The notes beneath the pieces are model-generated. The model was not told the origin of the DNA. It saw nothing but the letters and a program-made list of their open reading frames with translations, and did not search any database. Position numbers and translations under genes: made by a program. A stretch of 51,425 bases of DNA, from the NCBI RefSeq assembly GCF_022095675.1, contig NZ_JAHYSG010000087.1, positions 1 through 51,425 of the forward strand. Direction: 5' to 3'. Origin of the DNA: Dactylosporangium sp. AC04546. Lineage in GTDB: Bacteria > Actinomycetota > Actinomycetes > Mycobacteriales > Micromonosporaceae. This document shows, piece after piece, positions 662 to 34,056 of this stretch (the stretch's first letter is position 1; every line of letters starts with the position of its first letter).

Positions 662-1942
662 TCAGGCGTCCCGGGTCGCGGCGGCCAGCGCGGCCGCGCG
701 GCGGCGCATCGGGCCGGCCAGCCGCAGCGTGGCCGCGGTCGTCAGGACGGCGACGCCGACGCAGCCCCACCACAGGGCCGCCTCGCCGGCCGTGACGAAC
801 AGCAACGACGCGATCGCCGGGGCGGCGAAGCGGGCCACCGACCAGATCCACGCGAACGCGCCCTGGTAGCGGCCGCGGGCGTCGGGCGGGGCCAGGTCGG
901 CGACGATCGTCGCGCCGACCATCGCGTGGGCCACCTCGCCGACCGTCCACACGACCGTGGTCGCCGCGTACTGCCACGCGTGGTCGGCCAGGCCGGTGCC
1001 CGCGACGCCGAGGCCGATGAGCAGCCAGGCGGCGACCAGGATGCGGACCCGGTCGAGGCCGACCATCCACTGGTACGCGAACGGTTGCAGGACGATCACC
1101 AGGATCGCGTTGGTCGCGCCGACCAGGCCGAAGACCGTGGGGGACAGGCCGTCGACCTTGATGGCGAGGGGTACCGCGAACTCCGTCTGCGAGTAGATGA
1201 GCACGCCGAGCAGGTTGATTGCCAGGTAGCCGAGCATGACCCGGTCGCGCAGCACGACGCCGTAGCCGGTGGTGCGCTCCGCGGCGCCGGCGGTGGGGTG
1301 GGTGCCGGCGGGCACCCCGAGGTACACGATGACCGCGAAGGCCAGGCATCCCACGCCGTCGACCAGGAACAGCAGCCAGTAGCCGTGCGCGGCGAGGAAG
1401 CCGGCGGCGGCGCTGGAGATCGCGGTGCCGATGTTGATCGCCCAGTGCAGCAGGCTGAACGCCTTCATCTGCTGCGCCGGGGCGACGATGTCCGACACGA
1501 GCGCCGACGCGGCCGGTTTGGGGACGCTGCTGCCGGCGCCGAGGACCACGGCCGCGGCGATGAACAGCGGCACCGACGGGGCGGCGAACAGGGCGCCGAG
1601 ACCGAACGGGGTCAGGGTCAGGCCCAGGATCACCGTGAAGCGGCGGCCGACCCGGTCGGCGAGCAGGCCGCCCAGCGCCGGGCCGAACAGTCCGCCGAAC
1701 CCGACAGCCGCGGCGACCAGCCCGGCCGCGCCGGCGGACACGTGGCGGGTGCCGAGAAAGAACACCAGAAACGGCACGACCATGTTGCCGACGCGATTGG
1801 CGATCATGCCGCTGAACATGATCCAGAATGCGCCGGGGAGCCCGCCGAACCGGGCCGCCGCGGCCGCCCGCAGCCGGCCTCGTGGAGCGGGCGCGGCGGG
1901 TTCGGCGGAAACTGTGCCCGAGATGACGCACCCCCAGCTCAT
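662..1942 (-). CDS. MFS efflux transporter
   Basis: About 426 residues with the alternating hydrophobic segments of a 12-helix major facilitator. The motif-A-like loop between helices 2 and 3 reads GGLLADRVGRRF, and the N-terminal helices are rich in small residues. Members of this family beside biosynthetic genes usually export the product using the proton gradient, and that is the inferred role. The ATG at 1942 gives MSWG and a short cytoplasmic leader; an in-frame ATG at 1969 also exists and neither has a strong ribosome-binding site. The gene is cotranscribed with the downstream glycosyltransferase and divergent from the DsbA-like gene. The substrate cannot be read from sequence. Confidence 0.82.
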   Translation of the reverse strand: MSWGCVISGTVSAEPAAPAPRGRLRAAAAARFGGLPGAFWIMFSGMIANRVGNMVVPFLVFFLGTRHVSAGAAGLVAAAVGFGGLFGPALGGLLADRVGRRFTVILGLTLTPFGLGALFAAPSVPLFIAAAVVLGAGSSVPKPAASALVSDIVAPAQQMKAFSLLHWAINIGTAISSAAAGFLAAHGYWLLFLVDGVGCLAFAVIVYLGVPAGTHPTAGAAERTTGYGVVLRDRVMLGYLAINLLGVLIYSQTEFAVPLAIKVDGLSPTVFGLVGATNAILVIVLQPFAYQWMVGLDRVRILVAAWLLIGLGVAGTGLADHAWQYAATTVVWTVGEVAHAMVGATIVADLAPPDARGRYQGAFAWIWSVARFAAPAIASLLFVTAGEAALWWGCVGVAVLTTAATLRLAGPMRRRAAALAAATRDA

Positions 1943-2050: not shown

Positions 2051-2641
2051 ATGAGCACGACATTCTGGTTCGATCCCAGCTGTCCATTCACGTGGCGCAC
2101 GTCGCGCTGGATTCGCGACACCGCCGCCCGCCGCGGCGAGACCGTCCGGTGGCGCTTCCTGAGCCTCGCGATCCTCAACGAGGGCCGCGACGGCGTGCCC
2201 GAGCGGTTCCGCACCGCGCACGCCGCCGCGCTGCGCGCCCTGCGGGTGCTCGCCGCCGCCGACGAGCAGCACGGCCAGGAGGCCGTCGACGCGCTCTACA
2301 CGCAGCTCGGCGCGCGGGTCCACGACCGGGACGAGCCGCTGTCGTCCGAGACGATCGCCGCCGCGGTCGCCGCCGCCGGGCTGCCCGCCGGGCTGAGCGC
2401 CGCGGCCGACGACACCGCCCATGACAAGGCGGTGCGGGAGAGCCACGACGACGCCCAGGCCCGGGTCGGCACGGAGAGCGGCAGCCCGGTGCTCGCCGTC
2501 GGCGACGGCCCGGCGTTCTTCGGCCCGGTGCTGGTGCCGGTCCCGCAGGGCGCGGACGCCGACCGGCTCCTCGACGCGCTGCGGCTGCTGTCGCAGGTGC
2601 CGCAGTTCAGCGAGCTCAAGCGGGGCCGCAACCCGCTGTAG
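2051..2641 (+). CDS. DsbA-family thioredoxin-fold protein, mycothiol-dependent nitroreductase (Rv2466c)-like
   Basis: 196 residues starting MSTTFWFDPSCPFTWRTSRW. The FWFDP-CP--W--SRW signature and length match the actinobacterial Rv2466c-type DsbA subfamily, which uses mycothiol as reductant. Where the classical members carry CPWC, this protein has CPFT, so the second active-site cysteine is replaced by Thr and only Cys11 remains; that favours monothiol chemistry. An upstream in-frame ATG at 2042 is an alternative start. It stands alone between the hydrazine operon and the exporter. A role in reducing or detoxifying a reactive N-N or quinone intermediate is inference from position only. Confidence 0.75.
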   Translation: MSTTFWFDPSCPFTWRTSRWIRDTAARRGETVRWRFLSLAILNEGRDGVPERFRTAHAAALRALRVLAAADEQHGQEAVDALYTQLGARVHDRDEPLSSETIAAAVAAAGLPAGLSAAADDTAHDKAVRESHDDAQARVGTESGSPVLAVGDGPAFFGPVLVPVPQGADADRLLDALRLLSQVPQFSELKRGRNPL

Positions 2642-2726: not shown

Positions 2727-4118
2727 TCACGGTGGGGCCCGCAACGCTCCGTCGTTGATCGCGCCGTTGACCGGGGCCGGCCCGGCGGCGCGGTCCTCGG
2801 CGAGGAACAGGCGGACGAGTGACGGCAGCGCGTAGCGGCCGGGACCGCCGTCGGGCTCTGCCAGGCCGGCATCGACGAGCGCCTCCATGGCCGCCTCGGC
2901 CTCGCCGTCGGGCGCCGCACCGCCGGCCGTGGCCGGCCGGTCCGCGGGAAGGGCGCCGTCGGTTGGGGAAGGGCGGTCCGCGGGAAGGGCGCCCTCCGTT
3001 GGGGGAGGGCGGTCCGCGGCCAGGGCGCACAGCACGGCCCGTGTGCGCTCCAGCGCTGTGAACGCGGCCGCCGCGTCCGCCAGGCGGGCCCGCAGGTCGG
3101 TGTCGCCGGCCCGCAGCTCGGCCAGGCGGCGCCGCGGGTCGCGCAGGCGGGCCGCGGCCTGCTCCAGGGTCCAGCCGGGAGGCGCCGCGCGGGCCGCCGC
3201 GATGCGCAGGGCGAGGGGCAGGTGGTCGCACAGCTCCGCCACCTCCGCCGCCGCTGCCGGGGCGGCGTCGACCCGCTCGCCGCCCAGCAGGGCGCGCAAC
3301 AGCGCCAGCGACTCGGCGGGCGGGAGACGGCCGACCGGGACCCGTTCGACGCCGTCGAGGCCGAGCAGGCGGGAGCGGCTCGTCAGCAGCATCCGGCTGC
3401 CGGGCGCCTCGCCGAGCAGCGGCCGTACCTGCGCCTCGCCGCACACGTTGTCGAGCACGACCAGCAGCCGCCGCTGCGCGAGGACCGACCGCAGCGTGCG
3501 GCCCAGCTCGGCGAGCGAGCCGCAGTCGGGCGCGCCGACCGAGCGCAGCAGCTCGGCGAGCACGCCGCCGGTCTCGTCCGGGTCGACGTCGCGCAGGTCG
3601 GCGTAGAGGACCCCGTCCGGGTAGCGGGTGCGGTGGGTCGCCGCCCACCGCACCGCGCACGCGCTCTTGCCGGTCCCGACGGCGCCGTGCAGCAGCGTCG
3701 GGGCCGGGCCGGTCACGCCGGCCGGGGCGTCGAGCTCGGTCAGCCGGTCGAGGACCGCGGCCCGGCCGGTGAACCGGGCCGGGCCGGCCGGCAGCTGCAT
3801 CGGCACCGGCAGGACGTGGCGGGGCACCGGGTCCCCGCCGGCGTACCGCCCGTCGGTCGCCACGGCCAGCCGGCGCCACCGCTGCTCCCACTCGTCCCGG
3901 TCGCCGCCGCACGCCTCGACGAACGCGAGCGTCACCGCCAGGGTCGGCAGCCCGCCGCCGCTGGTGGCGGTGGACAGCACCGACGGCGAGTACCGGGCGC
4001 GGGTGGCCATGGCCCGGTAGCTCGGGCCGCCGGCCGCCCGGCGCAGCTCGCGCAGGTCCGACGCGAACGCCGCGACCGGGCTCGCGTGCGGGTCGATGGG
4101 CCGCTCAGGCCGGGCCAT
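2727..4118 (-). CDS. HTH plus NB-ARC (STAND-type) regulator
   Basis: 463 residues. An N-terminal XRE-like helix-turn-helix region (about residues 15-75; LRELRRAAGGPSYRAMATRA) precedes an NB-ARC ATPase with P-loop GAVGTGKS, a Walker-B-like LLVVLDN and a sensor region LLTSRSRLLG. Such proteins are usually nucleotide-switched transcription regulators. No C-terminal TPR or WD array is present; the protein ends about 150 residues after the ATPase, so it is short for the class. A Pro-rich segment near residues 365-395 is a 12-residue repeat (about GALPADRPSPTD) encoded by 36-bp tandem repeats at 2939-3019. Its start overlaps the ATP-grasp gene by 14 bases, making it the last gene of the hydrazine operon and probably its pathway regulator. 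Confidence 0.78.
   Translation of the reverse strand: MARPERPIDPHASPVAAFASDLRELRRAAGGPSYRAMATRARYSPSVLSTATSGGGLPTLAVTLAFVEACGGDRDEWEQRWRRLAVATDGRYAGGDPVPRHVLPVPMQLPAGPARFTGRAAVLDRLTELDAPAGVTGPAPTLLHGAVGTGKSACAVRWAATHRTRYPDGVLYADLRDVDPDETGGVLAELLRSVGAPDCGSLAELGRTLRSVLAQRRLLVVLDNVCGEAQVRPLLGEAPGSRMLLTSRSRLLGLDGVERVPVGRLPPAESLALLRALLGGERVDAAPAAAAEVAELCDHLPLALRIAAARAAPPGWTLEQAAARLRDPRRRLAELRAGDTDLRARLADAAAAFTALERTRAVLCALAADRPPPTEGALPADRPSPTDGALPADRPATAGGAAPDGEAEAAMEALVDAGLAEPDGGPGRYALPSLVRLFLAEDRAAGPAPVNGAINDGALRAPP
2939..3019. repeat. 36-bp tandem repeat inside the NB-ARC regulator gene
   Basis: Two near-identical 36-bp units (about 2939-2974 and 2975-3010) followed by a partial third (to 3019). 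They encode the repeated Ala-Leu-Pro-Ala-Asp-Arg-Pro-rich linker of the regulator. The repeat is in frame, so copy number can change without breaking the gene. Confidence 0.6.
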
Positions 4119-5412
4119 GTGCCGAGCCGTGCGCGGCGGGTTCGACGACGACGGCGACGGTGTCGGCGGCCGCCTTCACCAGCGGCGGGATCGGCTCGTC
4201 GAGCGGCGCGTCGAGGATGACCGACGTCGAGCGGGCCTCGCTGTCGGTCTGCGGCCCCAGCCGCTCGCCGGCCAGCCGGGTCACCAGGACCGCCAGGGTG
4301 CGCGGCGGCGCGTCGGCGGGCGCCGGGGAGAACGCGGGCCAGCGCGCGTCGCGCTCCACCCACGACACGGGCGCGGCCGAGCTCGCCACGTCGCGCAGGA
4401 TGCCGTGCGGGTGCTCGAGGTACACCTGGACCGCCCGCCGCACCGGCGCGGGATGGCTCGACGGCGTGCCGAGCGCGAGGTCGAGCATCGCCGGTTCGAG
4501 CGGCTGGCCGGTCGCCAGCTCCCACAGGAACATGATGCCGTCGCCGGGCAGCCGTGCCGCCGCCTCCATCAGCACCGGCACGCCGTCGACGAGCCGGAAC
4601 TCCAGGTGCGTGATGCCGTCGCGGAACTGCAGCTTGCGCAGGGCGTCGGCGTTGGCGACGGTGAGCGCGTCGAGCTCGGCGGGCGTGATCGGCGCCGGGC
4701 TCACATGGCCCATCTCGGTGAAGTAGACGCTGTCCACCTCGTTGGTCTGCTTCGCCGTCACCCCGGTCCAGAACACCTCGCCGTCGCGGGTGAGCGCCTC
4801 GACCGAGAACTCCGGCCCGACGACTCGTTCCTCGACGAGCACGGTCTCGTCCGGGCCGTAGGTGGCCAGCACCGCCGGCAGGGCGGCCGGGTCGTCGACC
4901 TTGCGCACGCCGAGGCTGGAGAACCGGGCCACCGGCTTGACGACCACGGGGAAGCGCAGCTCCGAGGCGTCCACAGTGGAGCGCTGCCCGGGTGTCACCG
5001 GGATCCAGCGCGGCGACAGGTGCGGCAGGGTCGTGCGCTGCAGCAGCTTGTTGCGGCAGACGCGGGCCGCGGTGGCACCGGTGCCGGGCAGGCCGAGGCA
5101 GTCGCCGACCAGGCCGACCGGCTCGACGAACAGGTCGCCGATGCACAGCACGGCCCGCACGTCGTAGCGGCGCAGCAGCGGCTGGATCGCCGGCAGGACG
5201 TGCTCGACGGTGGCCTCCGGGACCAGCACCACGTCCTCGAGCAGCGACAGCGGGTGGCTCGGGTCGGCGCGGTAGCGCTCGAAGCGCACCGGATCGGTGT
5301 CGGGCGTGATGACGAGCAGCGGCGCGTAGCCGCGGCGCTTGGCCTCGGTGATGAGGCGCAGCTGGCGGGCGACGATGATGAGGTCGCCCATGAAGAGCAC
5401 GGCCTTGGTCAC
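4105..5412 (-). CDS. ATP-grasp ligase
   Basis: 435 residues from a GTG start preceded by a strong GGAAGGAGT. The N-terminal Rossmann-like domain (VTKAVLFMGDLIIVARQLRL) is followed by an ATP-grasp core: FPVVVKPVARFSSLGVRKV (ATP-binding lysine and small-residue loop), VLVEERVVGPEFSVEAL, and the metal-binding segment THLEFRLVDGVPVLMEAAARLPGD. This matches carboxylate-amine ligases of the BL00235/L-amino-acid ligase type, which make an acyl-phosphate and couple it to an amine. The GTG overlaps the stop of the FAD gene (GTGA). It probably activates an amino-acid or hydrazino-acid carboxylate for amide formation, possibly joining the N-N unit to the polyketide. Substrates are unknown. Confidence 0.82.
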   Translation of the reverse strand: MTKAVLFMGDLIIVARQLRLITEAKRRGYAPLLVITPDTDPVRFERYRADPSHPLSLLEDVVLVPEATVEHVLPAIQPLLRRYDVRAVLCIGDLFVEPVGLVGDCLGLPGTGATAARVCRNKLLQRTTLPHLSPRWIPVTPGQRSTVDASELRFPVVVKPVARFSSLGVRKVDDPAALPAVLATYGPDETVLVEERVVGPEFSVEALTRDGEVFWTGVTAKQTNEVDSVYFTEMGHVSPAPITPAELDALTVANADALRKLQFRDGITHLEFRLVDGVPVLMEAAARLPGDGIMFLWELATGQPLEPAMLDLALGTPSSHPAPVRRAVQVYLEHPHGILRDVASSAAPVSWVERDARWPAFSPAPADAPPRTLAVLVTRLAGERLGPQTDSEARSTSVILDAPLDEPIPPLVKAAADTVAVVVEPAAHGSAHGPA

Positions 5413-7277
5413 GGTGAGACTCCTTCCACGATGGCGGGTTGTCGGCGCAGCACGGCCAGCACGCTGCGGGCGATCCGGTCGTTCTGGCGGAACGACAGGG
5501 CGTTGCTGCGCGGCCGGGCGAACGTGCCGAAGTAGGTCACGCTCGTGAACGGCCCGACGGCGAAGCGCTGCGGGTGGGCCCGGCCGTCGCGTTCGATCAG
5601 GCGGAAGTCCGCGTCGACGCGCAGCTGCCCGTGCCGCTGTGGCCGCTCGTCGGCGGCGACGAGCAGCTGCTCGCCGGCCTCGCCGCGCTCGCAGAGGTCG
5701 CGCAGCAGGCGGTCGGTGCAGGTCCGCACGTCGCCGGCCGGCAGCCGCGCCTCGATCAGGCCGGTGGCGGTGGCGATCCCGGCCGCGGTGTCGCCGGCGA
5801 CGCGGAACACCCCGCCGCGCTCGTCGCGGTGGACCCGCATGCCGGCGCCCGCGAACCGCACGATCCCGGCCCGGGACAGCGCGAGCAGCTGCCGGACCCG
5901 CACGGCCGGCGGCCCGCTGCCGTAGTACTCGAAGAAGCTCTGCCACCAGCCCCGCACGTCCTCGACGTAGGAGGTGGCGTGGATCCGCCCGGTGGCCAGG
6001 ATGTCGGCCATCTGGCCGTAGGCGGAGCGCAGCCCGTGGAAGGCGGCCAGGTCGGCGCTGTGCGCCGGGTCGCCGCGGCGGCGCAGGTCGGCGGCGAGAT
6101 GCCCGCGCAGGTGCTCCTGGAGCCGGGCGAGGGACGGCAGCGACACCCCATGCAGCGGCCGGTCGTACGCCTCGAAGTCGAGCCGGTCGGCCGGGTCGGG
6201 CACGGCGGCGGCGACGAGGTCGCGCCGCGCGGGGGAGTACCAGTCCAGCTCGGCGTAGCCGTCGGCGAAGGCCGCCCACGGCAGCGCCGTGCGCCCCGGG
6301 TGGGCGGCGAAGAGCTGGTGGTAGTACGCCCAGCCGACCTCCTTGGCGATGAGCGGCCACAGGTCGGCCTGGAAGTCGATCGACCGGCCGGCGAGGGAGC
6401 CGGTCACGCGATCGGCGTCGAAGAACCGGGGCAGCGGCGCCGGCGGGGCCGGCAGGCGGTAGGTGAACTTCGCCCGGTACGGCACGCCGCGGCGGGAGCC
6501 GGCCAGCAGCACCGGCTCGGCGCCGCACGGCACGTACTCCAGCTCGCCGCGGCGCTCGCGGTACCGGCCGCCACGGCCCTCGGTGAGCAGCACCATGAGG
6601 TCGGTGAAGGCGAGGCCCAGCCCGCGCATCGCGACCACCTGGCCGGCGCCGAACGCCGAGAGGTCCGCGTCGGTGGAGTACGCCCGCGGCAGGTAGGGCA
6701 GCCGGTGCCGCCCGGCGAACGCCGCCATCGCCTGCTCGTGCTCGCCGGGGGCGTTGTCGAGATGCCCCATCGACAGCACCACGACGTCGGCGGCGAGGCA
6801 GCCCGGCGCGTCGCGCAGCCACACCCGCTGGCGGCCGCCGGGGCCGGTGTCGAGGCGGACGGCGAGCGTCGGGTGGACCCGCACGGTGACGTTCGGTGGG
6901 CGGCCGGCGACGAGGCGCTCGAAGACCCACCCGAGGTAGCGGCTCTGGACCCGGCGGCTGGCGAACGACATGCCGGTCAGCCCGGCCACGGCGCCCTCGC
7001 CGGCGGCCCACTCGGACAGCGACGGCCCCGGCCGGGGCGGCCCGGCGCAGCGGACCGTCTCGTCCGGGAACATCGTGACGTCCTCGGCCATCGCGTTCAT
7101 CCACATGAGCGGCGGCTGGTCGGCCCGCCACACCCGCCCGCCGCCCGGCGGGTACGGGTCGACCAGCTCGATCCGCATGGGCGCGCCCCCCAGCAGCTCG
7201 CCGGCGTTGGCCAGCAGCCGTTCCAGCACGCCGGTACCGCGGGGGCCGGCACCGACGATCGCCACGGTGAACGTCAT
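5409..7277 (-). CDS. FAD/NAD(P)-binding protein, large (NAD_binding_9-like)
   Basis: 622 residues opening MTFTVAIVGAGPRGTGVLER, a GxGxxG Rossmann motif in the form typical of the FAD-NAD(P)-binding (NAD_binding_9) family, which is distantly related to N-hydroxylases. A second nucleotide-site-like segment, VVAMRGLGLAFTDLMVLLTEG, follows near residue 220. Its start overlaps the 2OG-oxygenase stop (ATGA) and its end overlaps the ATP-grasp start. It is much larger than the D-amino-acid-oxidase-like flavoenzyme that follows hydrazine synthesis in the s56-p1 pathway, so it may do a different redox step. A role in oxidising or N-hydroxylating the hydrazine product is inferred. Family membership is reasonably sure, the reaction is not. 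Confidence 0.75.
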   Translation of the reverse strand: MTFTVAIVGAGPRGTGVLERLLANAGELLGGAPMRIELVDPYPPGGGRVWRADQPPLMWMNAMAEDVTMFPDETVRCAGPPRPGPSLSEWAAGEGAVAGLTGMSFASRRVQSRYLGWVFERLVAGRPPNVTVRVHPTLAVRLDTGPGGRQRVWLRDAPGCLAADVVVLSMGHLDNAPGEHEQAMAAFAGRHRLPYLPRAYSTDADLSAFGAGQVVAMRGLGLAFTDLMVLLTEGRGGRYRERRGELEYVPCGAEPVLLAGSRRGVPYRAKFTYRLPAPPAPLPRFFDADRVTGSLAGRSIDFQADLWPLIAKEVGWAYYHQLFAAHPGRTALPWAAFADGYAELDWYSPARRDLVAAAVPDPADRLDFEAYDRPLHGVSLPSLARLQEHLRGHLAADLRRRGDPAHSADLAAFHGLRSAYGQMADILATGRIHATSYVEDVRGWWQSFFEYYGSGPPAVRVRQLLALSRAGIVRFAGAGMRVHRDERGGVFRVAGDTAAGIATATGLIEARLPAGDVRTCTDRLLRDLCERGEAGEQLLVAADERPQRHGQLRVDADFRLIERDGRAHPQRFAVGPFTSVTYFGTFARPRSNALSFRQNDRIARSVLAVLRRQPAIVEGVSP

Positions 7278-8272: not shown

Positions 8273-9862
8273 CTAGTCGATGGGGGGCGGGCCGAGGCGC
8301 GGGAGCGGGAACGGCTGGGTGCGCCGCTCGGTCCACGCGCCCTCGGCCAGGCTGAGCCGGCGGCCGGCGGCCGCGTCGGCGAGGATCGGCGCGGCCCCGG
8401 CCAGCAGCACGGCCACCTCGTGGTACAGGTCGCCGAGCTCCTGCGGGGTGGCCGCCCGGCCGGCGCCGGCCAGCTCGCCGGCCCGCCGCAGCAGCCGGGC
8501 GACCTGCGCGACGACGAGGTCGGCGGCCCGGGTCAGGCTGTAGGTCGCCAGTTCGTAGCAGAGCCGGAAGCGGGCCGCCACGGCCTCGGCCCGGTCCGCG
8601 GCGGCGGCGCTCACCGGCAGCGCCGCGGTGCCGGCACCCGCGTCGGCGGCGAGCTTGTCCAGCAGCCCGGCCAGCCGGTCCCAGGGTCCGACCAGGCGCT
8701 CCCCGGCGACCTTGTCGAGGGCCTCCCGGCTGAAGTTGGTCCGCTGGTGCTCGGGGCAGGTGAGCGCCAGGTAGAAGCGGATCAGGTCGCGCGGCACCTC
8801 GCGCAGCAGGTCGCGGCTGTGCAGGACGTGGCCCAGGCTGGTGGAGAACTTGTCGTTCTCCAGCTCGTAGAACTCGTTGGAGACGTACGTGTCGGGCAGC
8901 GCGTACCGCTCGCCGTGGGCCATCAGCAGCGCCAGGTGCGTCATCCCCCAGAAGTAGACGTTGTCGAAGCCGATGAAGTAGACGATGTGCGGGTCGTGCT
9001 CGGCGCGCCACAGCTCGTCGTCGGCCCGTCGCGGCAGGCCCGCCTGCTCGGCCGCGAACTGGGTGCAGTACATGACGGCCGGGATGCCCTCCACCCAGGC
9101 GTTGACGGTCTGCCCGGGCGTCTCAGCGAACGGCGCCGGGATGCCCCACGCGACCGGGTAGGTGACCGGGAAGTCGGGCAGCGGCCTGTCGAGCAACTCC
9201 CGCACCAGCTGCACGGTGTGCGGCCGCATGCGGCCGGTGCGCTCGGCGTAGTAGGCGGTGAGCCGGTCGCGGTAGCGCTCCATCGGCAGCACCAGGATCC
9301 GCGCCTCGCGGGTGGTCACCGGGTCGTCGGGGTCGACGGTCGAGCGGGCGTTGAGCAGCTCGTCGAAGTTGTTGGGGTGCCCGCACGTCTCGCACAGCCC
9401 GCCGCGGCTGAACGTGAGGCAGACCGGGCAGTCGCCGGCGACGAGCCCCTCGACGAGGAACGTGCCGGTCCGCTCGGAGTACGGCAGCCGCACGTCCCGC
9501 GGTTCGAAGACGCCGCCGCGGTACAGCGGGGCCAGGAAGTCCAGCACCGCGGCGCGGTAACGCCCGTCGTAGGGGGCGAAGCCGTCCAGCGAGATCGCCA
9601 TGCCGGCGAGGGTGGCCCGGATCTCGTGCCAGGACCGCCCGGCCAGCTCGGCCGGGTCGATGCCCTTGCGCTGCGCGGAGGCCAGGACGTAGGTCTGGCT
9701 GTCGTCGGTGCCGCTGCTGAAGACGACCCGGCGGCCGAGCCCGCGCAGGTAGCGGGCGTAGACGTCGGCGGCGATGAACGGGCCGGCGAGGTGGCCGACG
9801 TGCAGGTCCCCGTTGGAGGTGGGCGGGGTGTCGACGACGATCGCGAGGCGGTCGGCGCTCAT
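8273..9862 (-). CDS. Methionyl-tRNA-synthetase-like half of a hydrazine synthetase
   Basis: 529 residues of class I MetRS fold. A HIGH-type motif appears as HVGH (residues 21-24, in NGDLHVGHLAGPF). A zinc knuckle is formed by CPVC (145-148) and CETC (157-160). The KMSKS loop is altered to KFSTS (338-342). In known hydrazine-forming enzymes (Spb40 of s56-p1 and homologues) a cupin fused to a MetRS-like domain activates an amino acid and joins it to N-hydroxylysine, after which the cupin rearranges the ester to an N-N bond. Here the MetRS-like part is a separate gene whose ATG overlaps the cupin stop (ATGA). The altered KMSKS and the operon make a housekeeping MetRS very unlikely. The partner amino acid is unknown. 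Confidence 0.85.
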   Translation of the reverse strand: MSADRLAIVVDTPPTSNGDLHVGHLAGPFIAADVYARYLRGLGRRVVFSSGTDDSQTYVLASAQRKGIDPAELAGRSWHEIRATLAGMAISLDGFAPYDGRYRAAVLDFLAPLYRGGVFEPRDVRLPYSERTGTFLVEGLVAGDCPVCLTFSRGGLCETCGHPNNFDELLNARSTVDPDDPVTTREARILVLPMERYRDRLTAYYAERTGRMRPHTVQLVRELLDRPLPDFPVTYPVAWGIPAPFAETPGQTVNAWVEGIPAVMYCTQFAAEQAGLPRRADDELWRAEHDPHIVYFIGFDNVYFWGMTHLALLMAHGERYALPDTYVSNEFYELENDKFSTSLGHVLHSRDLLREVPRDLIRFYLALTCPEHQRTNFSREALDKVAGERLVGPWDRLAGLLDKLAADAGAGTAALPVSAAAADRAEAVAARFRLCYELATYSLTRAADLVVAQVARLLRRAGELAGAGRAATPQELGDLYHEVAVLLAGAAPILADAAAGRRLSLAEGAWTERRTQPFPLPRLGPPPID

Positions 9863-10233
9863 GCCTCCGTGCTCCCGTGGCTCCCGTGCCGCTCGGCGAA
9901 CACGGCGGTCATCGGCGCGTCCCACCACACGGCGTAGAACTGCAACGGCTCGTCGGTCTCGTTGACGACCTGGTGCTCGACGTGCGGCGGGAAGTGCACG
10001 ACGTCGCCCTCGACGAACGGCACCCGCTCGCCGGCCGAGGCCAGCACCCCCTGCCCGGAGACGGCGATGAAGATCTCGTACTCGTGGTGCGCGTGCGCGG
10101 TCGTGGCGCTGTGCGGGTTGACGACGCACCAGGCGCCCTCGAACGGGGCGTTGAGCTCCGGCCAGGGCAGCAGCCGCTGGGAGTAGGCGTTGTCCGGGTG
10201 CAGGGCGGCGCGGTCGAGGTGGCGGATTCGCAT
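9859..10233 (-). CDS. Cupin half of a hydrazine synthetase
   Basis: 124 residues, one cupin barrel. Metal-binding motif 1 is HAHHEYE (HxHxxxE) followed by IFIAVSGQG. Motif 2 is FPPHVEHQVVN, with the expected His and Asn. In fused hydrazine synthetases the equivalent zinc cupin catalyses rearrangement of the N-hydroxylysine aminoacyl ester to the hydrazine. Here it lies between the N-hydroxylase (2 bases upstream) and the MetRS-like gene (ATGA overlap), in the order cupin then MetRS. The start follows AAGGAGTGACC, a strong ribosome-binding site. Taken alone it would be an anonymous cupin; the neighbours give the assignment. Confidence 0.83.
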   Translation of the reverse strand: MRIRHLDRAALHPDNAYSQRLLPWPELNAPFEGAWCVVNPHSATTAHAHHEYEIFIAVSGQGVLASAGERVPFVEGDVVHFPPHVEHQVVNETDEPLQFYAVWWDAPMTAVFAERHGSHGSTEA

Positions 10234-10235
10234 GG

Positions 10236-11516
10236 TCACTCCTTGGTGGATGCCGCGTCGCGCAGGTCGGCGAGCAGGTCGCCGACGATGTCCGCGGCGC
10301 GCGGGGCCATCATGCTGAGCAGGGAGTCGGAGATGCCGTGGGTGGCCTCGTTGACGCCGACCAGGTAGCAGGCGGCGCCGTCGGCGTCGGGCAGGTCGAG
10401 GCGGTAGTTGCGGTTCACGGTGATCCGGGCCAGCCCGAGCCGGTCGGCCAGGCCGCGGACCAGCGGCGGCGGGTCGCGCCGGAAGCCGGTGCCGAGCAGC
10501 ACGAGGTCGCAGCGCAGCACGTCGCGGCGGCCGGTGCGCCGGTCGGTGAGCTCCAGCACCACCTCGCCGGACTCGTGCCGGGCGTCGGTGACGTCGACCA
10601 TGGTCAGCACCTGCAGCTGCCCCTTGCCGCTGAGCCGGTCGAGGTACAGCTGCTCGTAGATCGACTCCAGGGTGTGCTCGGCCAGCGCCGAGTAGTTCGT
10701 CAGGTGCATCTCGCCGAGGATCTGCCGGCGGGCGGCTGGGCCGGCGCCGTAGTAGTCGTCGACGGCCGACGGGAAGTAGTGCTCGTTGGTGAACTTGCTG
10801 TTCTCGTAGGTGCGCATGGCGATCGAGCGCATCGCGATCGTGCGGTGGCAGCCGGGCAGGTCGTGCTGCACGGCGTCGAACATCTCCGCGGCGCTCTGCG
10901 CGCCGCCGATTACGACCACCCGCTGCGGGACGCCCCTGGGCACGGCGGCGATGCGCCCGCGGTACTCGGCGCTGTGGATGACGTGGCGGGGCGGGAGGGC
11001 GGCGAACGCGGCGGGCACGTTGGGCTCGCGGCCGGCGCCGACGACGAGGTGCCGGCAGCCGATGGTGGAGCCGTCGGCGAGGTGCGCGACCCAGCCGGTG
11101 ACGGGCCCGTCGCCGGCCCGGCGGGGCGTCAGCGCGACGCAGCGCTGCGAGCACTCGACCCGGACCTTGGCCAGGGAGGCGGCGACCCAGTGGAAGTAGT
11201 CGGACAGCTCGACCCGGTACGGCGTGACGCGGCCCAGGTTGACGAACTGGCTGAGCCGGCCGGTCTCGTGCAGGTAGTTGACGAACGTGAACCGGCTCAG
11301 CGGGTTGCGCAGCGTCGCCACGTCCTTGAGGAAGGACACCTGGCTCTGCACGCCGGGCAGCAGCATGCCGCGCTGCCAGGCGACCGTCTCGGCCTGCTCG
11401 ATGACGAGCGCGTCGCGGGCGTACGCGTCGGGCGCGAGCTCCTCGACCGCGACGGCGACGGCGAGGTTGCCCGGCCCGGCGCCGACGGCGAGCAACGCGA
11501 CCTCACGGTGCTCCAT
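10236..11516 (-). CDS. L-lysine/L-ornithine-type N-hydroxylase (flavin N-monooxygenase)
   Basis: 426 residues of the IucD/SidA/PvdA family. It carries the FAD motif GAGPGN (12-17), the family segment VSFLKDVATLRNP near residue 60, a substrate/NADPH region RVVVIGGAQSAAEMFDA, and a C-terminal ATHGISDSLLS. Family enzymes hydroxylate the terminal amine of lysine or ornithine using FAD and NADPH. No siderophore NRPS or IucA/C synthetase is nearby; the next two genes are the cupin and the MetRS-like protein, which require N6-hydroxylysine in the known pathways. Lysine is therefore the expected substrate. Its ATG overlaps the stop of the aldo-keto reductase gene (ATGA). Confidence 0.87.
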   Translation of the reverse strand: MEHREVALLAVGAGPGNLAVAVAVEELAPDAYARDALVIEQAETVAWQRGMLLPGVQSQVSFLKDVATLRNPLSRFTFVNYLHETGRLSQFVNLGRVTPYRVELSDYFHWVAASLAKVRVECSQRCVALTPRRAGDGPVTGWVAHLADGSTIGCRHLVVGAGREPNVPAAFAALPPRHVIHSAEYRGRIAAVPRGVPQRVVVIGGAQSAAEMFDAVQHDLPGCHRTIAMRSIAMRTYENSKFTNEHYFPSAVDDYYGAGPAARRQILGEMHLTNYSALAEHTLESIYEQLYLDRLSGKGQLQVLTMVDVTDARHESGEVVLELTDRRTGRRDVLRCDLVLLGTGFRRDPPPLVRGLADRLGLARITVNRNYRLDLPDADGAACYLVGVNEATHGISDSLLSMMAPRAADIVGDLLADLRDAASTKE

Positions 11517-12499
11517 CAGGCGTCAATCAGCATCGTGACCAGCTCGCCGTAGCGCTCCCCGGCGAGCTGCCCGGCCGGGAACGCCTGCTCCAGCTCGGCG
11601 AGGTCGTCCGCGGTGAGCCGCAGGCCGGCGGCGGTGGCGTCCTCCCGGATGTGCTCGGGGGTCTTGCAGCCGGCAAGGGCGACGATGGCGGGGCCGCGGG
11701 ACAGCACCCAGGCCAGCGCGACGACCGCCGGGCTGGTGCCGTGCCGCCCGGCGACGGCCCGCAGCGGCGCCAGCAGCTCCAGGTTGCGCTCGATGTTGCC
11801 GTCGGCGAAGCGGGGGAAGTTGTTGCGCCAGTCGCCCTCGTCGAGGTGGGCCAGCCCGCGCACGGTGCCGGTGAGGAAGCCCCGGCCGAGCGGCGCGTAG
11901 GCGACCAGCCCGACGCCGAGGTCCGCCAGGACGTCGAGGATGTGCTCCTCGACGTGCCGGGTCCACAGCGAGTACTCGGTCACCAGCAGCGCCACCGGGT
12001 GGGCGGCGATCGCCCGGCGCAGCGTGGCGGGGGCCGCCTCGGACAGCGCCAGGTGCCGGACCTTTCCGGCCGTGACGAGCTCGCCGAGCGCGCCGACGGA
12101 CTCCTCGACCGGCACGTCCCGGTCGACCCAGGCCAGGCACGACACGTCGAGGCGGTCGGTGCCGAGCCGCCGCAGCGACTCGTCGACGGAGCGGCGCAGG
12201 AACTCCGGCCGCCCGTCGAGCTTCATGCCGCCGGCGTCGGGGTCGGGCCGGATGCCGGTCTTCACCATGAGCACGGCCTCGTCGCGGCGGTCGCCGAGGG
12301 CCCGGCCGATGAGCCGCTCGCCGCGGCCGTCGCCGTAGAAGTGCGCGGTGTCGACGAGGGCGACGCCGGCGTCGAGCGCGGCGCGGACGGTCGCCTCGCA
12401 CGCGGCCTCGTCCTCGACGCCGTAGCCGCCGGTCATGCCCATGGTGCCCAGGCCGATCGCCGGCACCGTGAGGTGTGGGGTGAGTGCACGCTGCTGCAC
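11516..12499 (-). CDS. Aldo-keto reductase family protein lacking the catalytic histidine
   Basis: 327 residues from a GTG start, the first gene of the minus-strand hydrazine operon. The fold is that of the AKR13/YajO-type reductases: IGLGTMGMTGGYG at the N-terminus, Asp50 and Tyr55 in VDTAHFYGDGRGE, Lys80 in VLMVKTG. The strand that normally reads LHR-VDP reads CLAWVDRDVP, so the catalytic His is Ala123 and the next residue is Trp. Reduction of an aldehyde (for example the semialdehyde released in hydrazine pathways) would be the natural guess, but loss of His suggests weakened or altered chemistry, as in AKR-fold double-bond reductases. The NADPH-binding end (LAGCKTPEHIRE) looks intact. Confidence 0.8.
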   Translation of the reverse strand: MQQRALTPHLTVPAIGLGTMGMTGGYGVEDEAACEATVRAALDAGVALVDTAHFYGDGRGERLIGRALGDRRDEAVLMVKTGIRPDPDAGGMKLDGRPEFLRRSVDESLRRLGTDRLDVSCLAWVDRDVPVEESVGALGELVTAGKVRHLALSEAAPATLRRAIAAHPVALLVTEYSLWTRHVEEHILDVLADLGVGLVAYAPLGRGFLTGTVRGLAHLDEGDWRNNFPRFADGNIERNLELLAPLRAVAGRHGTSPAVVALAWVLSRGPAIVALAGCKTPEHIREDATAAGLRLTADDLAELEQAFPAGQLAGERYGELVTMLIDA

Positions 12500-12703: not shown

Positions 12704-13732
12704 ATGACGCAGGAAGCCAAGGCGCTCACGCCGGAGCGGTTCCACCAGGTCCTGCTCGCCTACTGCGGGTCGAAGACGCTGATGAGCGCGGTCGAGGTCG
12801 ACCTGTTCAGCGTGCTGGCGGAGCTCGGCGCCGCGACCGAGGAGCAGCTGCGACGGCGGCTGAACCTGCACCCGCGCTTCGCCCGGCACTTCCTGGAGGC
12901 GCTGGTGGCGCTGGAGCTGCTGGCACGCGACGGCGAGCAGTACCGCAACACCCCGCTGTCCGAGGTGTTCCTCGACCGCAACAAGCCCTCCTACGTGGGC
13001 GGCTTCGCCGAGATGACCAGCGAGACCTTCTACCCGGCCTGGGGCCGGCTGACCAAGGCGCTGCACACCGGCCAGGCGCAGGCGCCGCAGCCGCCCGACG
13101 ACGACGTGCACCTGTTCCGCCTCGACTCGACCCGCGAGCCGGAGCGCGTGCGCCGGTTCATGACCGCCATGGATTCGCACAGCACGCGGATGGGTGAGGC
13201 GCTCGCCGAGCTCATCGACTGGCGGCGGTACCGCACGTTCGCCGACCTCGGCGGCGCCCGCGGCAACCTGGCGTCGGTCATCGCCAAGGCCCACTCGCAC
13301 CTGACCGGCGTCTGCTTCGACCGGCGGCAGTCGCAGCCGTTCTTCGACGAGCACATCGAGCGCCTCGGCCTGGCCGAGCGGATCACGTTCCAGGCGGGCG
13401 ACTTCTTCAGCTCGCCGCTGCCAGAGGCCGACGTGCTCGTCTACGGCCACGTGCTGCACGACTGGGGCCCGGACAACCGCCGGCAGCTGCTGGCCCGCGC
13501 CCACGACGCGCTGCGGCCCGGCGGGGCGCTCGTCGTCTACGACCGCATGATCGACGGCACGCCGACCGACCTCAACCGGCTGTTCTTCAGCCTCACGTTC
13601 ATGCTCGCGTCGGCCGGCGGCTCCGAGTACAGCGTCGACGAGTGCCGCGCGTGGCTGCGCGAGGCCGGCTTCACCAGCATCGAGCACCACGCCGTCCTCG
13701 ACGACCACACCGTCGTCGTCGCGTACCGCTGA
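12704..13732 (+). CDS. SAM-dependent O-methyltransferase (DnrK/TcmO-type)
   Basis: 342 residues. The N-terminal winged-helix dimerisation domain (LLAYCGSKTLMSAVEVDLF) is followed by a class I methyltransferase core with FADLGGARGNLASVIA as motif I, FQAGDFFSSPLPEADVLVYGHVLHDWG as motifs II-III, and LRPGGALVVYDRMID. This is the plant-OMT-like family that methylates phenolic hydroxyls of aromatic polyketides. Motif I has GGARG instead of the usual GGGxG, a mild deviation. The gene starts an operon with a FAD hydroxylase (10 bases downstream) and a P450. It probably methylates the aglycone; the position is unknown. Confidence 0.85.
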   Translation: MTQEAKALTPERFHQVLLAYCGSKTLMSAVEVDLFSVLAELGAATEEQLRRRLNLHPRFARHFLEALVALELLARDGEQYRNTPLSEVFLDRNKPSYVGGFAEMTSETFYPAWGRLTKALHTGQAQAPQPPDDDVHLFRLDSTREPERVRRFMTAMDSHSTRMGEALAELIDWRRYRTFADLGGARGNLASVIAKAHSHLTGVCFDRRQSQPFFDEHIERLGLAERITFQAGDFFSSPLPEADVLVYGHVLHDWGPDNRRQLLARAHDALRPGGALVVYDRMIDGTPTDLNRLFFSLTFMLASAGGSEYSVDECRAWLREAGFTSIEHHAVLDDHTVVVAYR

Positions 13733-13741
13733 GAGGTCGCC

Positions 13742-15340
13742 ATGCAAACCTACGACACCCCGGTCCTCATCGTCGGCGGCGGGCTCACCGGCCTGGCCGC
13801 GTCGGCGCTGCTGTCCCTGCACGGCGTGGAGTCCGTGCTCGTCGAGCGGCACAAGGGCACCTCGGTACACCCGAAGGCCCGCGCGATCAACCCGCGCACC
13901 ACCGAGGTGCTGCGCGCCATCGGCATCGAGGACGAGGTCATGGCCAACCGCTCGCCCATCGCCGGCAACACCGACCTCGTGCACGTGGTCACCCTCGCCG
14001 GGGCCGAGCGGGTGCGGCTGCCGCGCCCGTCGCAGCAGGACATGTCGGCGCTCACGCCGAGCGGCTGGGCCCTCATCGACCAGAACCGCCTGGAGCCGAT
14101 CCTGCTGGAGCAGGTGCGGCGCAACGGGGCCGGGCTGCGGTACCACACCGAGCTCTCGGCGCTGGAGATCGACGACGACGGCGTCACCGCCGTGCTGCGC
14201 GACCGGGGCACCGGCGAGCAGCAGGAGCTGCGGGCGCGGTACCTCATCGCCGCCGACGGCAACCGCAGCCCGGTCCGGCAGCTCGCCGGCGTCGCCCAGC
14301 ACGGCGCCGGCACCCTGACGAGCATGGTCAGCTTCATGTTCGACGCCGACCTGAGCGCCGCCATCGGCGACCGGCGGATCATCGCCGCCTACGTCAACAA
14401 CGAGCACCTGCGCGGCACCCTCATGCCGCTGGACAACCGGCAGCGCTGGGTCTTCAACGTCTCCTACGAGCCGGAGCAGGGCGAGAAGCCCGAGGACTTC
14501 ACCGCCGAGCGGTGCGTCGAGCTGATCCGGCTCGGCGTCGGCGACCCGGACCTGGCCGTCGAGCTGGAGCGCACCCCGCTGCTGCCGTGGGAGATCGCCG
14601 CCCGCTGCGCCGACCGGCTGCGCAGCGGCCCGGTCTTCCTGGCCGGCGACGCGGCCCACGTCATGCCGCCCACGGGCGCGTTCGGCGCCAGCGCCGGCAT
14701 CCAGGACGTGCACAACCTGGCCTGGAAGCTGGCCGCGGTGCTGCACGGCGTGGCCGGCCCGGACCTGCTGGACACCTACGACAGCGAGCGGCGCCCGATC
14801 GCCGAGCTCATGGTCAGCCAGTCGATGCTGCGCTTCGAGATCCGCGAGGGCAAGCCCTACGACGCGGTGGCCGGGGCGATGCTCGACGAGCTGGTGATGT
14901 CGTTCGGCTACCGCTACGACGGCGCCGGCGGCTACGGCATCGAGGACCCGGACGAACCGTCGGCCGAGCCCGGCGCGCGGGCCCCGCACGCCTGGCTGGA
15001 GCAGGGCGGCCAGCGGCTGTCCACAGTGGACCTGTTCGACCGGTCGCTGGTGCTGCTCACCGGGCCGCAGGGCGGGGCCTGGGCGACGGCGTTCGACGCG
15101 GTCGCGGCGGCGGTCGGCGCCCGGGCGGCGAGCCACACCGTCGGCGCGCTCGGCGACCTGGTCCCGGCCGACGACTGCTTCGCCCGCCGCTACCGCCTCG
15201 GCGCGGCCGGTGCGGTGCTGGTGCGCCCCGACGGCTTCGTGGCCTGGCGGGCCGGCGCCCTGGCCGCCGACCCGCGGGCCGAGCTCGCGGACGCGCTGAC
15301 CCGCCTGCTGTGCACCACCGGACGGGAGGCCGGGGCATGA
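13742..15340 (+). CDS. FAD-dependent aromatic hydroxylase / monooxygenase (PgaE/OxyS/RdmE class)
   Basis: 532 residues of the group A flavoprotein monooxygenases. It has an N-terminal ADP-binding GGGLTG (12-17), the mid-protein DG motif region YLIAADGNRSPVR, and the FAD ribityl-binding GDAAHVMPPTGAFGAS near residue 301, followed by DVHNLAWKLA. The C-terminal thioredoxin-like domain typical of polyketide hydroxylases (about 420-530) is present. Relatives hydroxylate or carry out Baeyer-Villiger oxidation on aromatic polyketides, including xanthone formation in pentangular compounds. Its stop overlaps the P450 start (ATGA). The exact reaction cannot be told from sequence. Confidence 0.87.
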   Translation: MQTYDTPVLIVGGGLTGLAASALLSLHGVESVLVERHKGTSVHPKARAINPRTTEVLRAIGIEDEVMANRSPIAGNTDLVHVVTLAGAERVRLPRPSQQDMSALTPSGWALIDQNRLEPILLEQVRRNGAGLRYHTELSALEIDDDGVTAVLRDRGTGEQQELRARYLIAADGNRSPVRQLAGVAQHGAGTLTSMVSFMFDADLSAAIGDRRIIAAYVNNEHLRGTLMPLDNRQRWVFNVSYEPEQGEKPEDFTAERCVELIRLGVGDPDLAVELERTPLLPWEIAARCADRLRSGPVFLAGDAAHVMPPTGAFGASAGIQDVHNLAWKLAAVLHGVAGPDLLDTYDSERRPIAELMVSQSMLRFEIREGKPYDAVAGAMLDELVMSFGYRYDGAGGYGIEDPDEPSAEPGARAPHAWLEQGGQRLSTVDLFDRSLVLLTGPQGGAWATAFDAVAAAVGARAASHTVGALGDLVPADDCFARRYRLGAAGAVLVRPDGFVAWRAGALAADPRAELADALTRLLCTTGREAGA

Positions 15341-16590
15341 CCGCGACGACCACGCCGATCGGCGCCGAGTACCGGCCGTTCGTCGACCTCGACCAGTACC
15401 CGCTGTACCGCCGGGCCCGCCACGAGGAGCCGGTGTTCTTCAGCCCGGCCCTCGGCGCGTGGGTGGTCACCCGCTACGACGACGTGCGCGAGGTGCTGGG
15501 CAACCCGAAGGCGTACTCGCTGGCCACCGTGCCGGACTCGCTCGCCCGGCTGTCGGACGAGGCCTACACCGAGCTGGCCAGGACGTTCTCCGAGGTGCCG
15601 GTCGCGATCCGCGAGGACGCCGTCGACGAGGCCCGCAAGCGCGTGCGCACGCCGATCCTCCAGGCGTTCTCGCCGGAGGTCGTCGCGTCGATGGGCCCGT
15701 TCATCGCCGAACAGGTCGGGGGGCTCGTCGACGCGTTCGCCGGCGCCGGCCGGACCGGTCGGGCCGACCTGATGGCGCAGTTCGCGCGGCAGGTGCCGGT
15801 GCGGGTCAAGGCGCCGGTGCTCGGCATCGACGAGGCCGACGTCGACGCGTTCGTCACCGGCACGTTCGACTTCATGGAGCTGCACTCGGTCGCCGCCCAG
15901 CTGCCGGTCGAGCGGCAGGTCGAGAAGGCCCGCGCGGTCGTGCGCTACCAGCTGCTGCTCGACGCGCACGCCCGGCGCCGCCGCGCCGAGCCGCGCGACG
16001 ACCTGTTCAGCCGGCTCGTGACCGCGCTCGCGCCGGGCGGGCCCGGGCAGGAGCTGAGCGTCGCGCAGCGCAAGGTGCTCGTCGACGCGATGACCGGGCT
16101 GATCGCGGCCGGCCACTTCACCAGCACCGCCATGATCGGCACCGGCGTCTACCACCTGCTGCGCCACCGCGACCAGTGGCGGCTGCTGTGCGAGCGGCCC
16201 GAGCTGCTCGACACCGCGATCGAGGAGCTGGCCCGCTACGACATGCCGCTGCGCGGGCTCATGCGGCGCACCACCAAGCCGGTCACCCTGGCCGGCCTCG
16301 ACCTGCCCCCGCGGACCGAGCTCATGGTGGTGTACCAGTCGGCGAACCGCGACGAGACCGTCTTCGAGCGGCCCGACGAGCTCGACATCACCCGGGCACC
16401 CGGCGAGCACCTCGGCTACGGCCACGGCTCCCGGTCCTGCGTGGGCGCGCCGCTCGGCCGGGCGATGTTCCGGGAGTGCCTCGCGCAGCTCACCCGGCGG
16501 CTGCCGGACCTGCGGCTGGCGCCGGGGGCCGAGGTGCGGTTCATGCCGGGCCTGCACGTCATCCCGACCGCGATCCCCGTCGTGTGGTGA
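15337..16590 (+). CDS. Cytochrome P450
   Basis: 417 residues. The I-helix oxygen-activation segment reads GLIAAGHFTSTAM, the ExxR of helix K is in EELARYD, and the heme loop is GYGHGSRSCVG with axial Cys368, so it should be a working P450. Its N-terminus (RRARHEEPVFFSP then AWVVTRYDDVREVL) and many later segments are strikingly similar to the second P450 of the window, suggesting duplication within the cluster. It ends the plus-strand tailoring operon and is followed directly by a strong bidirectional terminator. Likely oxidises the aglycone. Confidence 0.9.
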   Translation: MTATTTPIGAEYRPFVDLDQYPLYRRARHEEPVFFSPALGAWVVTRYDDVREVLGNPKAYSLATVPDSLARLSDEAYTELARTFSEVPVAIREDAVDEARKRVRTPILQAFSPEVVASMGPFIAEQVGGLVDAFAGAGRTGRADLMAQFARQVPVRVKAPVLGIDEADVDAFVTGTFDFMELHSVAAQLPVERQVEKARAVVRYQLLLDAHARRRRAEPRDDLFSRLVTALAPGGPGQELSVAQRKVLVDAMTGLIAAGHFTSTAMIGTGVYHLLRHRDQWRLLCERPELLDTAIEELARYDMPLRGLMRRTTKPVTLAGLDLPPRTELMVVYQSANRDETVFERPDELDITRAPGEHLGYGHGSRSCVGAPLGRAMFRECLAQLTRRLPDLRLAPGAEVRFMPGLHVIPTAIPVVW

Positions 16591-31661: not shown

Positions 31662-31666
31662 GGGCG

Positions 31667-34050: not shown

Positions 34051-34056
34051 GGGCGC

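What the first reader, a model, noticed from the sequence alone, without database searches (positions are those of the whole stretch)
8273..11516. Hydrazine synthetase gene set embedded in a type II polyketide cluster
Directly seen: N-hydroxylase, cupin and MetRS-like genes side by side with ATGA or 2-base spacing. Established: N-hydroxylysine plus cupin/MetRS (Spb38/Spb40 in s56-p1 and homologues in triacsin, pyrazole C-nucleoside and other pathways) makes N-N bonds. Inference: the same cluster makes an aromatic polyketide 7 kb away, so the final product may be a hydrazine-, pyridazine- or N-amino-containing glycosylated aromatic. I know of no characterised pathway combining these parts.
Basis: partly seen in the sequence, partly recalled or inferred. 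Interest (0 to 1): 0.92.

Follow-up and report, generated by a model that had tools for sequence, protein, structure and literature searches.

The report
Hydrazine-making operon beside aromatic polyketide genes
A soil actinomycete carries a set of genes predicted to join two amino acids through a rare nitrogen-nitrogen bond, right beside genes for a sugar-bearing aromatic polyketide, so it may make an unusual hybrid compound or two separate ones.

Summary
The three genes are as described and look like a genuine split hydrazine synthetase (MetRS-like 8273-9862, cupin 9859-10233, N-hydroxylase 10236-11516). Four cupin residues spaced as the zinc and catalytic residues of RHS1/PyrN are invariant in 74 of 74 cupins compared; the MetRS-like protein is far from the genome's housekeeping MetRS. 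The claim that nothing characterised combines these parts is wrong: albofungin pairs a type II PKS with split MetRS, cupin and N-hydroxylase. This set is not of that type: its MetRS is 35% identical to an albofungin-type locus, and no asparagine-synthetase transferase is among 50 window proteins scanned. New: the genes sit in a predicted eight-gene operon whose synthetase belongs to a clade that always carries an AsnO-like asparagine hydroxylase (16 of 16, against 0 of 64 other loci at >=50% identity). In its inner branch (9 of 9) the usual DAO-type oxidase is missing and a PF13454 flavoprotein, related to aspartate N-hydroxylases, is present. In the 8 nearest relatives this cassette has no type II PKS on its contig, so coupling to the polyketide is open; a polyketide-type glycosyltransferase on the outer flank favours it slightly.

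The parts
1..660 (-). N-terminal 220 aa of an EryCIII-like glycosyltransferase, cut by the contig start; probable C-terminal half at the end of contig C33 (105596-106003)
662..1819 (-). MFS exporter (matches exporters in 27 of 79 hydrazine loci at E<=1e-12, best 34%); its stop lies one base before the glycosyltransferase start
2051..2641 (+). Rv2466c/DsbA-like protein, found at 62-67% in 7 of 8 close cassettes
2727..4118 (-). NB-ARC/AAA regulator, last gene of the predicted operon
4105..5412 (-). ATP-grasp ligase (best solved relative L-amino acid ligase BL00235, 57 bits)
5409..7277 (-). PF13454 FAD/NAD(P)-binding flavoprotein, 39% identical to L-Asp N-hydroxylase 8CP2 but without most of its Asp-binding residues
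7277..8254 (-). AsnO-like Fe/2-oxoglutarate dioxygenase (61% identical to asparagine oxygenase 2OG5)
8273..9862 (-). MetRS-like half of the hydrazine synthetase
9859..10233 (-). cupin half of the hydrazine synthetase
10236..11516 (-). flavin-dependent omega-amino-acid N-hydroxylase
11516..12466 (-). aldo/keto reductase, first gene of the predicted operon; no match in 79 related hydrazine loci
12704..16590 (+). polyketide tailoring: O-methyltransferase, FAD ring hydroxylase, P450
18257..22964 (+). type II PKS core: cyclase, cupin, KS, CLF, aromatase/cyclase, ketoreductase, ABM monooxygenase
22940..27054 (-). acetyl-CoA carboxylase subunits and an ACP fused to an ABM domain
31089..47882 (.). region with deoxysugar and glycosylation genes (3,5-epimerase, DegT aminotransferase, two GTs, MycE-like MT, P450 with its best NCBIfam match to GT activators below cut-off, BBE oxidase, epimerase, 2,3-dehydratase, Gfo/Idh)

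Best explanation
The predicted operon 12466-2727 is a hydrazine-building cassette of the split MetRS/cupin kind. Proposed course: the flavin N-hydroxylase makes an omega-N-hydroxy lysine or ornithine; the MetRS-like protein adenylates a second amino acid and esterifies it onto the N-OH; the Zn-cupin rearranges the labile ester to an N-N bonded adduct (mechanism established for PyrN/RHS1, inferred here). The clade-wide partner, an AsnO-like dioxygenase, supplies 3-hydroxyasparagine, which I infer to be the second amino acid or its ligation partner. The PF13454 flavoprotein takes the slot of the Spb39-type oxidase and oxidises the adduct, perhaps at nitrogen; the ATP-grasp enzyme makes an amide bond, and the MFS protein exports. 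In this strain the cassette has been taken into a glycosylated aromatic type II PKS cluster and more likely than not feeds it. Shown by sequence: gene content, spacing, intact cupin site, clade, co-occurrence. Inferred: operon, substrates, the flavoprotein reaction, coupling to the polyketide.
For: Domains. Cupin H47/H49/E53/H87 invariant in 74 of 74 (window plus 73 of 79 loci; six loci gave no usable cupin match: L069, L083-L087), with the same spacing as the RHS1 zinc residues D63/H65/E69/H103 and PyrN H50/E56/H90. MetRS-like protein in a 9-row clade (96*) with 8 close cassettes; 8 housekeeping MetRS rows separate at 100*. AsnO-like dioxygenase at 58-64% in 15 of 15 other members of the 16-row clade (99*), 0 of 64 other loci at >=50%. 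Flavoprotein in 8 of 8 close cassettes plus window, 0 of 71 others; Spb39-type DAO in 0 of 8 of these and 7 of 7 sister loci. Coupling: a glycosyltransferase one base from the exporter on the outer side; its N-half matches 3 and its presumed C-half 7 of 28 stretches from PKS-bearing contigs, and 0 of 79 hydrazine loci (E<=1e-12); AKR matches 2 of 28 and 0 of 79. HS-to-CLF distance 10.4 kb, shorter than the six other pairs within 50 kb found in 127 genomes.
Against: No KS or CLF in the fetched flanks (up to 10 kb, shorter at contig ends) of 79 loci. A CLF on the cassette's contig in 0 of 8 close relatives; 3 of them have no CLF-grade hit at all. None of 10 near CLF clusters fetched carries N-hydroxylase, cupin pair, MetRS-like, AsnO, flavoprotein or ATP-grasp matches. 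The flavoprotein family is large (3512 hits among 8000 candidates, against 890 for the MetRS-like protein), so a hydrazine-specific role is weakly grounded. No known transferase to join hydrazine to polyketide is in the window. The contig join to C33 is inferred, not read.
Confidence: 0.55

Rival explanations
1. Two independent neighbouring gene clusters: a self-contained cassette making a small exported N-N dipeptide or amino acid, and a glycosylated aromatic polyketide without N-N bond; 'embedded' is only adjacency.
For: Cassette conserved with no type II PKS on its contig in 8 of 8 close relatives (drafts), with an exporter. The two gene sets diverge at a 237-bp gap, 12467-12703. The PKS side has its own SARP-type regulators and ABC exporter. 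A MetRS-like gene lies 23-48 kb from a CLF in 6 of 127 genomes, so proximity occurs at a low rate.
Against: A polyketide-type glycosyltransferase lies on the far side and an AKR heads the operon, neither matched in 79 hydrazine loci; FemAB-like (5 of 8) and questin-oxidase-like (7 of 8) genes found beside the cassette in relatives were not found among the window proteins scanned by Pfam.
Confidence: 0.38
2. An albofungin-type pathway: free hydrazine made by the set is put into the polyketide by an asparagine-synthetase-like transferase to give an N-amino ring.
For: Same combination of split MetRS, cupin, N-hydroxylase and type II PKS; albofungin-type locus G651 has a CLF 59% identical.
Against: No Asn_synthase among 50 window proteins, whereas G651 has one; MetRS 35% and NMO 28% identical only; the two MetRS rows are far apart, though the G651 row is a long branch of unsure place.
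Confidence: 0.04
3. The MetRS-like gene is an ordinary or resistance-type MetRS and the neighbours are unrelated.
For: MetRS fold with HVGH and KFSTS motifs (protein); all but two of 35 solved matches are named Met-tRNA ligase/synthetase.
Against: Own housekeeping MetRS is on C16, 29% identical; MetRS-like row far from 8 housekeeping rows; positions aligned with E. coli L13 and H301 are P and W (roles recalled).
Confidence: 0.02

Closest known systems
Albofungin (afn/abf) cluster
   Same: Type II PKS with separate MetRS-like, cupin and lysine N-hydroxylase genes
   Different: Has an asparagine-synthetase-like hydrazine transferase; in the albofungin-type locus G651 the MetRS-like protein is 35% identical and the N-hydroxylase lies about 14 kb from it
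PyrN/RHS1, Spb40, Tri28 hydrazine synthetases
   Same: MetRS/cupin pair with N-hydroxylase; same spacing of cupin zinc and glutamate residues; split form known from RHS1
   Different: s56-p1 and triacsin sets use an Spb39-type DAO-family oxidase, which is not seen beside the set here
FzmM/CreE/Streptomyces sp. V2 L-aspartate N-hydroxylase
   Same: PF13454 flavoprotein, 230 of 586 aligned residues identical; R13, N62, R577, R593 kept
   Different: Asp-binding R276, R412, N413, R416 replaced; no nitrosuccinate-lyase-type protein among the window proteins scanned; belongs to a large uncharacterised family
AsnO, asparagine oxygenase (2OG5)
   Same: 190 of 313 aligned residues identical, iron ligands and substrate residues kept
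   Different: Sits among hydrazine genes; that AsnO itself serves an NRPS product is recalled
Kinamycin/lomaiviticin diazo pathways
   Same: N-N group on an aromatic polyketide (abstract start in listing)
   Different: One nitrogen comes from nitrous acid (abstract start) and a KinJ heme enzyme makes the N-N bond (passages); absence of a MetRS/cupin pair there is recalled

Membership tests
MetRS/cupin hydrazine synthetase | Cupin with zinc residues and catalytic Glu of RHS1/PyrN | tested here: met
   H47, H49, E53, H87 in 74 of 74; spacing 2-4-34 equals RHS1 D63/H65/E69/H103, and 6-34 equals PyrN H50/E56/H90
MetRS/cupin hydrazine synthetase | MetRS-like partner distinct from housekeeping MetRS | tested here: met
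MetRS/cupin hydrazine synthetase | Neighbouring flavin N-hydroxylase of the Lys/Orn type | tested here: met
MetRS/cupin hydrazine synthetase | ATP-dependent N-N bond formation | not testable with these tools
   needs enzyme assay
Hydrazinoacetate (Spb38-40) subpathway | DAO-family oxidase that cleaves the adduct | tested here: not met
   no DAO-type oxidase beside the set in the window (weak PF01266 match only in the ring hydroxylase) or in 8 close cassettes; present in 7 of 7 sister loci
Albofungin-type pathway | Asn-synthetase-like hydrazine transferase | tested here: not met
   absent from 50 window proteins; present in G651
Aspartate N-hydroxylase (FzmM/CreE) | Arginine/asparagine cluster binding L-aspartate | tested here: not met
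   R276, R412, N413, R416 of 8CP2 replaced in the window protein; R13 and R577 kept; roles
AsnO-type asparagine hydroxylase | Iron ligands and substrate residues H155, E157, H287, E125, N146, D241, R305 | tested here: met
   all identical; residue roles and the offset of 24 are recalled or inferred, no call
AsnO-type asparagine hydroxylase | 3-hydroxylation of L-Asn | not testable with these tools
   needs assay
Type II PKS cluster | KS, CLF, ACP, KR, aromatase/cyclase | tested here: met
   the only ACP among the proteins scanned is fused to an ABM domain

The most novel reading that the evidence does not exclude
A glycosylated aromatic polyketide that carries an oxidised hydrazine built from an N-hydroxy diamino acid and 3-hydroxyasparagine: a second, independent route by which type II PKS clusters acquired a split hydrazine synthetase, without the asparagine-synthetase transferase of albofungin, and with a PF13454 flavoprotein as a new class of hydrazine N-oxidase.
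Probability: 0.25. Interest if true: 0.8.

Novelty: new variant of a known kind. Interest (0 to 1): 0.55.

Why it matters
Two open points become testable. First, which amino acids unassigned branches of the hydrazine synthetase family use: the strict pairing with an AsnO-like enzyme predicts (hydroxy)asparagine, outside the Gly, Ala, Ser, Glu, Tyr set given in the review. Second, which enzymes oxidise hydrazines at nitrogen: that step is described as unresolved for N-nitroglycine and not identified for azaserine, and here a flavoprotein stands where the cleaving oxidase usually is, in a whole clade. If the polyketide link holds, it is a second origin of N-N bonded aromatic polyketides by this enzyme family.

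Tried and rejected
Rejected: housekeeping MetRS; albofungin-type pathway; literal Asp N-hydroxylase/nitrite supply, because most Asp-binding residues are gone and no nitrosuccinate-lyase-type protein appeared in the Pfam scans. I first read the PF13454 protein as an N-oxygenase with some confidence; one search showed a family larger than the hydrazine synthetases, so I lowered that claim. The genomic context of those relatives was not examined; by eye, ten of the 119 listed besides the window's share their longest-contig length with a listed MetRS-like protein. The residue table included five unrelated long proteins let in by a length filter; I rely instead. R409 looks conserved but aligns with a gap, and R266 is a gap and K; both are left undecided. 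Position Y260 of MetRS aligns differently to two solved MetRS, so only L13 and H301 are used.

Led nowhere or limited: searches for a described cassette of this composition showed none by title and start of abstract; of their hits only some papers were opened, by passages. One search, listing only, showed no fitting Dactylosporangium product. PMC7902042 held none of the hydrazine terms searched. Pfam scans cover 50 proteins from my own gene calls, so small or missed genes are possible. No structure prediction was run. antiSMASH/MIBiG and the sequences of Spb38/40, Tri28, PyrN and Afn8/9/18 were not available, so 'albofungin-type' for G651 is my label from gene content. The genome scan found 332 relatives, of which the best 80 (79 loci) were kept. 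The ten CLF clusters were chosen before one search listed nearer ones (G426, 66%, among others), which were not fetched. Loci L171-L174 were fetched; only L171 was used.
Full report
What is there. The window is one contig (C87, 51,425 bp) of a 13-Mb assembly. The genus Dactylosporangium is inferred because same-genus handles G004 and G005 coincide in coordinates with D. roseum (L052) and D. siamense (L033). On the minus strand lie, tightly packed, AKR 12466-11516, N-hydroxylase 11516-10236, cupin 10233-9859, MetRS-like 9862-8273, AsnO-like dioxygenase 8254-7277, PF13454 flavoprotein 7277-5409, ATP-grasp 5412-4105 and NB-ARC regulator 4118-2727. Junctions are overlaps, or gaps of 2 and 18 bases, so I call it a predicted operon.

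It is a hydrazine synthetase by every feature I could test. The cupin carries H47, H49, E53 and H87, invariant in 74 of 74 cupins (the window and 73 of 79 loci; six loci gave no usable match). Their spacing equals that of D63, H65, E69 and H103 of RHS1, whose alanine variants were inactive, and of H50, E56 and H90 of PyrN (PMC8664883, passages). RHS1 is 5UQP, which the cupin matches over equal lengths. The MetRS-like protein has HVGH and KFSTS where MetRS has HIGH- and KMSKS-type motifs (recalled). The alignment with E. coli MetRS puts P at L13 and W at H301 (roles recalled). The genome's true MetRS is elsewhere, 29% identical. In a tree of 90 rows (window, 79 loci, 2 loci near a PKS, 8 housekeeping), housekeeping rows form one group at 100*, and the window sits with 8 close cassettes at 96* (quick method, and the program warns of long branches, the two PKS-associated rows among them).

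A clade with its own chemistry. The 9 rows lie in a 16-row group (99*). All 15 other members carry the AsnO-like dioxygenase at 58-64% identity near the synthetase; of the other 64 loci none has it at 50% or more, and two have weak matches of 31-35%. I first picked those 15 loci for that gene, but the tree used all 79 loci. Inside, the 8 close cassettes and the window have the PF13454 flavoprotein and no Spb39-type DAO beside the set; the 7 sister loci have the DAO and no flavoprotein; the flavoprotein is in 0 of 71 other loci. Among the other 64 loci 14 have a DAO at 33% or more. ATP-grasp at 63-67% is in 8 of 8 close cassettes, the Rv2466c-like gene in 7 of 8. Flanks were at most 10 kb, so absences are local.

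Partner enzymes. The dioxygenase matches asparagine oxygenase 2OG5 at 375 bits, clavaminate synthase at 154 and lysine 3-hydroxylase at 137; 190 of 313 residues are identical and the seven iron and substrate positions recalled for AsnO are kept. The flavoprotein matches one solved protein, 8CP2 (315 bits, 230 of 586 aligned residues identical), the L-aspartate N-hydroxylase of Streptomyces sp. V2 (PMC10404684, passages). In the 120 listed relatives, the window's included, N62 is kept in 120, while R276, R412 and N413 are kept in 0 and R416 in 10, not in the window. So it is related to, but not, an aspartate N-hydroxylase. Against an over-reading: 3512 relatives were found among 8000 candidates, the 120 listed being 48% identical or more, against 890 for the MetRS-like protein, so the family surely reaches beyond hydrazine clusters; N-oxidation of the hydrazine is a hypothesis.

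Is it part of the polyketide cluster? Against: in 79 of 79 related loci no KS or CLF was found in the fetched flanks. In the 8 close relatives a CLF lies on the cassette's contig in 0 of 8 (drafts). Five have CLFs elsewhere; G378, G381 and G382 have only hits of 4.9e-42, 2.6e-41 and 5.9e-35, the range of other ketosynthases in that search. Ten near CLF clusters (20 stretches, nearer ones found later were not fetched) hold no match to N-hydroxylase, MetRS-like, AsnO, flavoprotein or ATP-grasp; relatives of the NB-ARC regulator do occur in L132 and L135. For: the cassette is bracketed. On its outer side an EryCIII-like glycosyltransferase starts one base after the exporter stop. Its missing C-terminal half fits the piece that ends contig C33; both halves match best one stretch of a Sphaerisporangium PKS locus (L133, positions 18326 and 19091), and 0 of 79 hydrazine loci match either half. 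The genes next to it in the last 78 kb of C33 look unrelated by their first residues, without a family search. The AKR that heads the operon matches 0 of 79 hydrazine loci and 2 of 28 stretches from PKS-bearing contigs.

Base rate. Among 61 genomes reached through loci (15 + 46; L071 not held; non-actinobacterial and a few other loci not sent) three have a MetRS-like gene within 50 kb of a CLF: G396 29.0 kb, G432 27.7 kb, G433 23.0 kb. Among 66 further Streptomyces genomes with a MetRS-like hit (74 of 392 searched; 8 already counted) three more: G651 25.4, G514 36.5, G494 48.3 kb. The window's 10.4 kb is the shortest. G651 is an albofungin-type locus by content: a cupin directly before the MetRS-like gene, an N-hydroxylase and a 619-aa Asn_synthase protein beside the PKS.

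Literature. Albofungin is a type II polyketide with a hydrazine group; its cluster has MetRS-like Afn8, cupin Afn9, hydroxylase Afn18 and transferase Afn14 (PMC11705231, passages; PMC9469721, passages). The review names Gly, Ala, Ser, Glu and Tyr as amino acid partners. The enzymes that finish the oxidation in N-nitroglycine are called unresolved and the azaserine hydrazone oxidase unidentified, while one diiron enzyme, Dob3, is known (PMC13274452 and PMC13061610, passages). Searches for a cassette like this one showed none, within an open-access library and by listing.

Verdict. A conserved but, as far as I could find, uncharacterised branch of a known enzyme family, whose link with polyketide biosynthesis is somewhat more likely than not in this strain.

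Noticed in passing
L156/L157 (G433, Kibdelosporangium banguiense): A distant hydrazine set (cupin, MetRS-like 34%, N-hydroxylase, DAO) 23 kb from a type II PKS whose OMT, ring hydroxylase and KR are 64-70% identical to those of the albofungin-type locus G651.
   Followed up: partly
L051, L063 (Serratia): Serratia hydrazine synthetases group with those of D. siamense and K. banguiense (support 94), which would suggest transfer between phyla.
   Followed up: no
window 26488-27054: The only ACP found in the PKS region is the N-terminal half of a protein with a C-terminal ABM monooxygenase domain.
   Followed up: no
L014 (Amycolatopsis xylanica) 13914-15551: Close cassette with an extra AMP-binding ligase and a second ATP-grasp gene; Rv2466c-like and questin-oxidase-like genes not found in the fetched flanks.
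   Followed up: no
L009-L016: A questin-oxidase-like gene (7 of 8) and a FemAB-like gene (5 of 8) accompany the cassette elsewhere but were not found in the window.
   Followed up: partly
window 36698-37708: 336-aa predicted protein in the sugar region with no Pfam match.
   Followed up: no
PDB 9L8V, 9VQ4: Best solved relatives of the MetRS-like protein (both about 166 bits), named Met-tRNA ligase; they may themselves be MetRS-like biosynthetic enzymes.
   Followed up: no
L159 14075-14374 (G651): The albofungin-type cupin has D-x-H-x3-E, as RHS1 does, where the window has H-x-H-x3-E.
   Followed up: no
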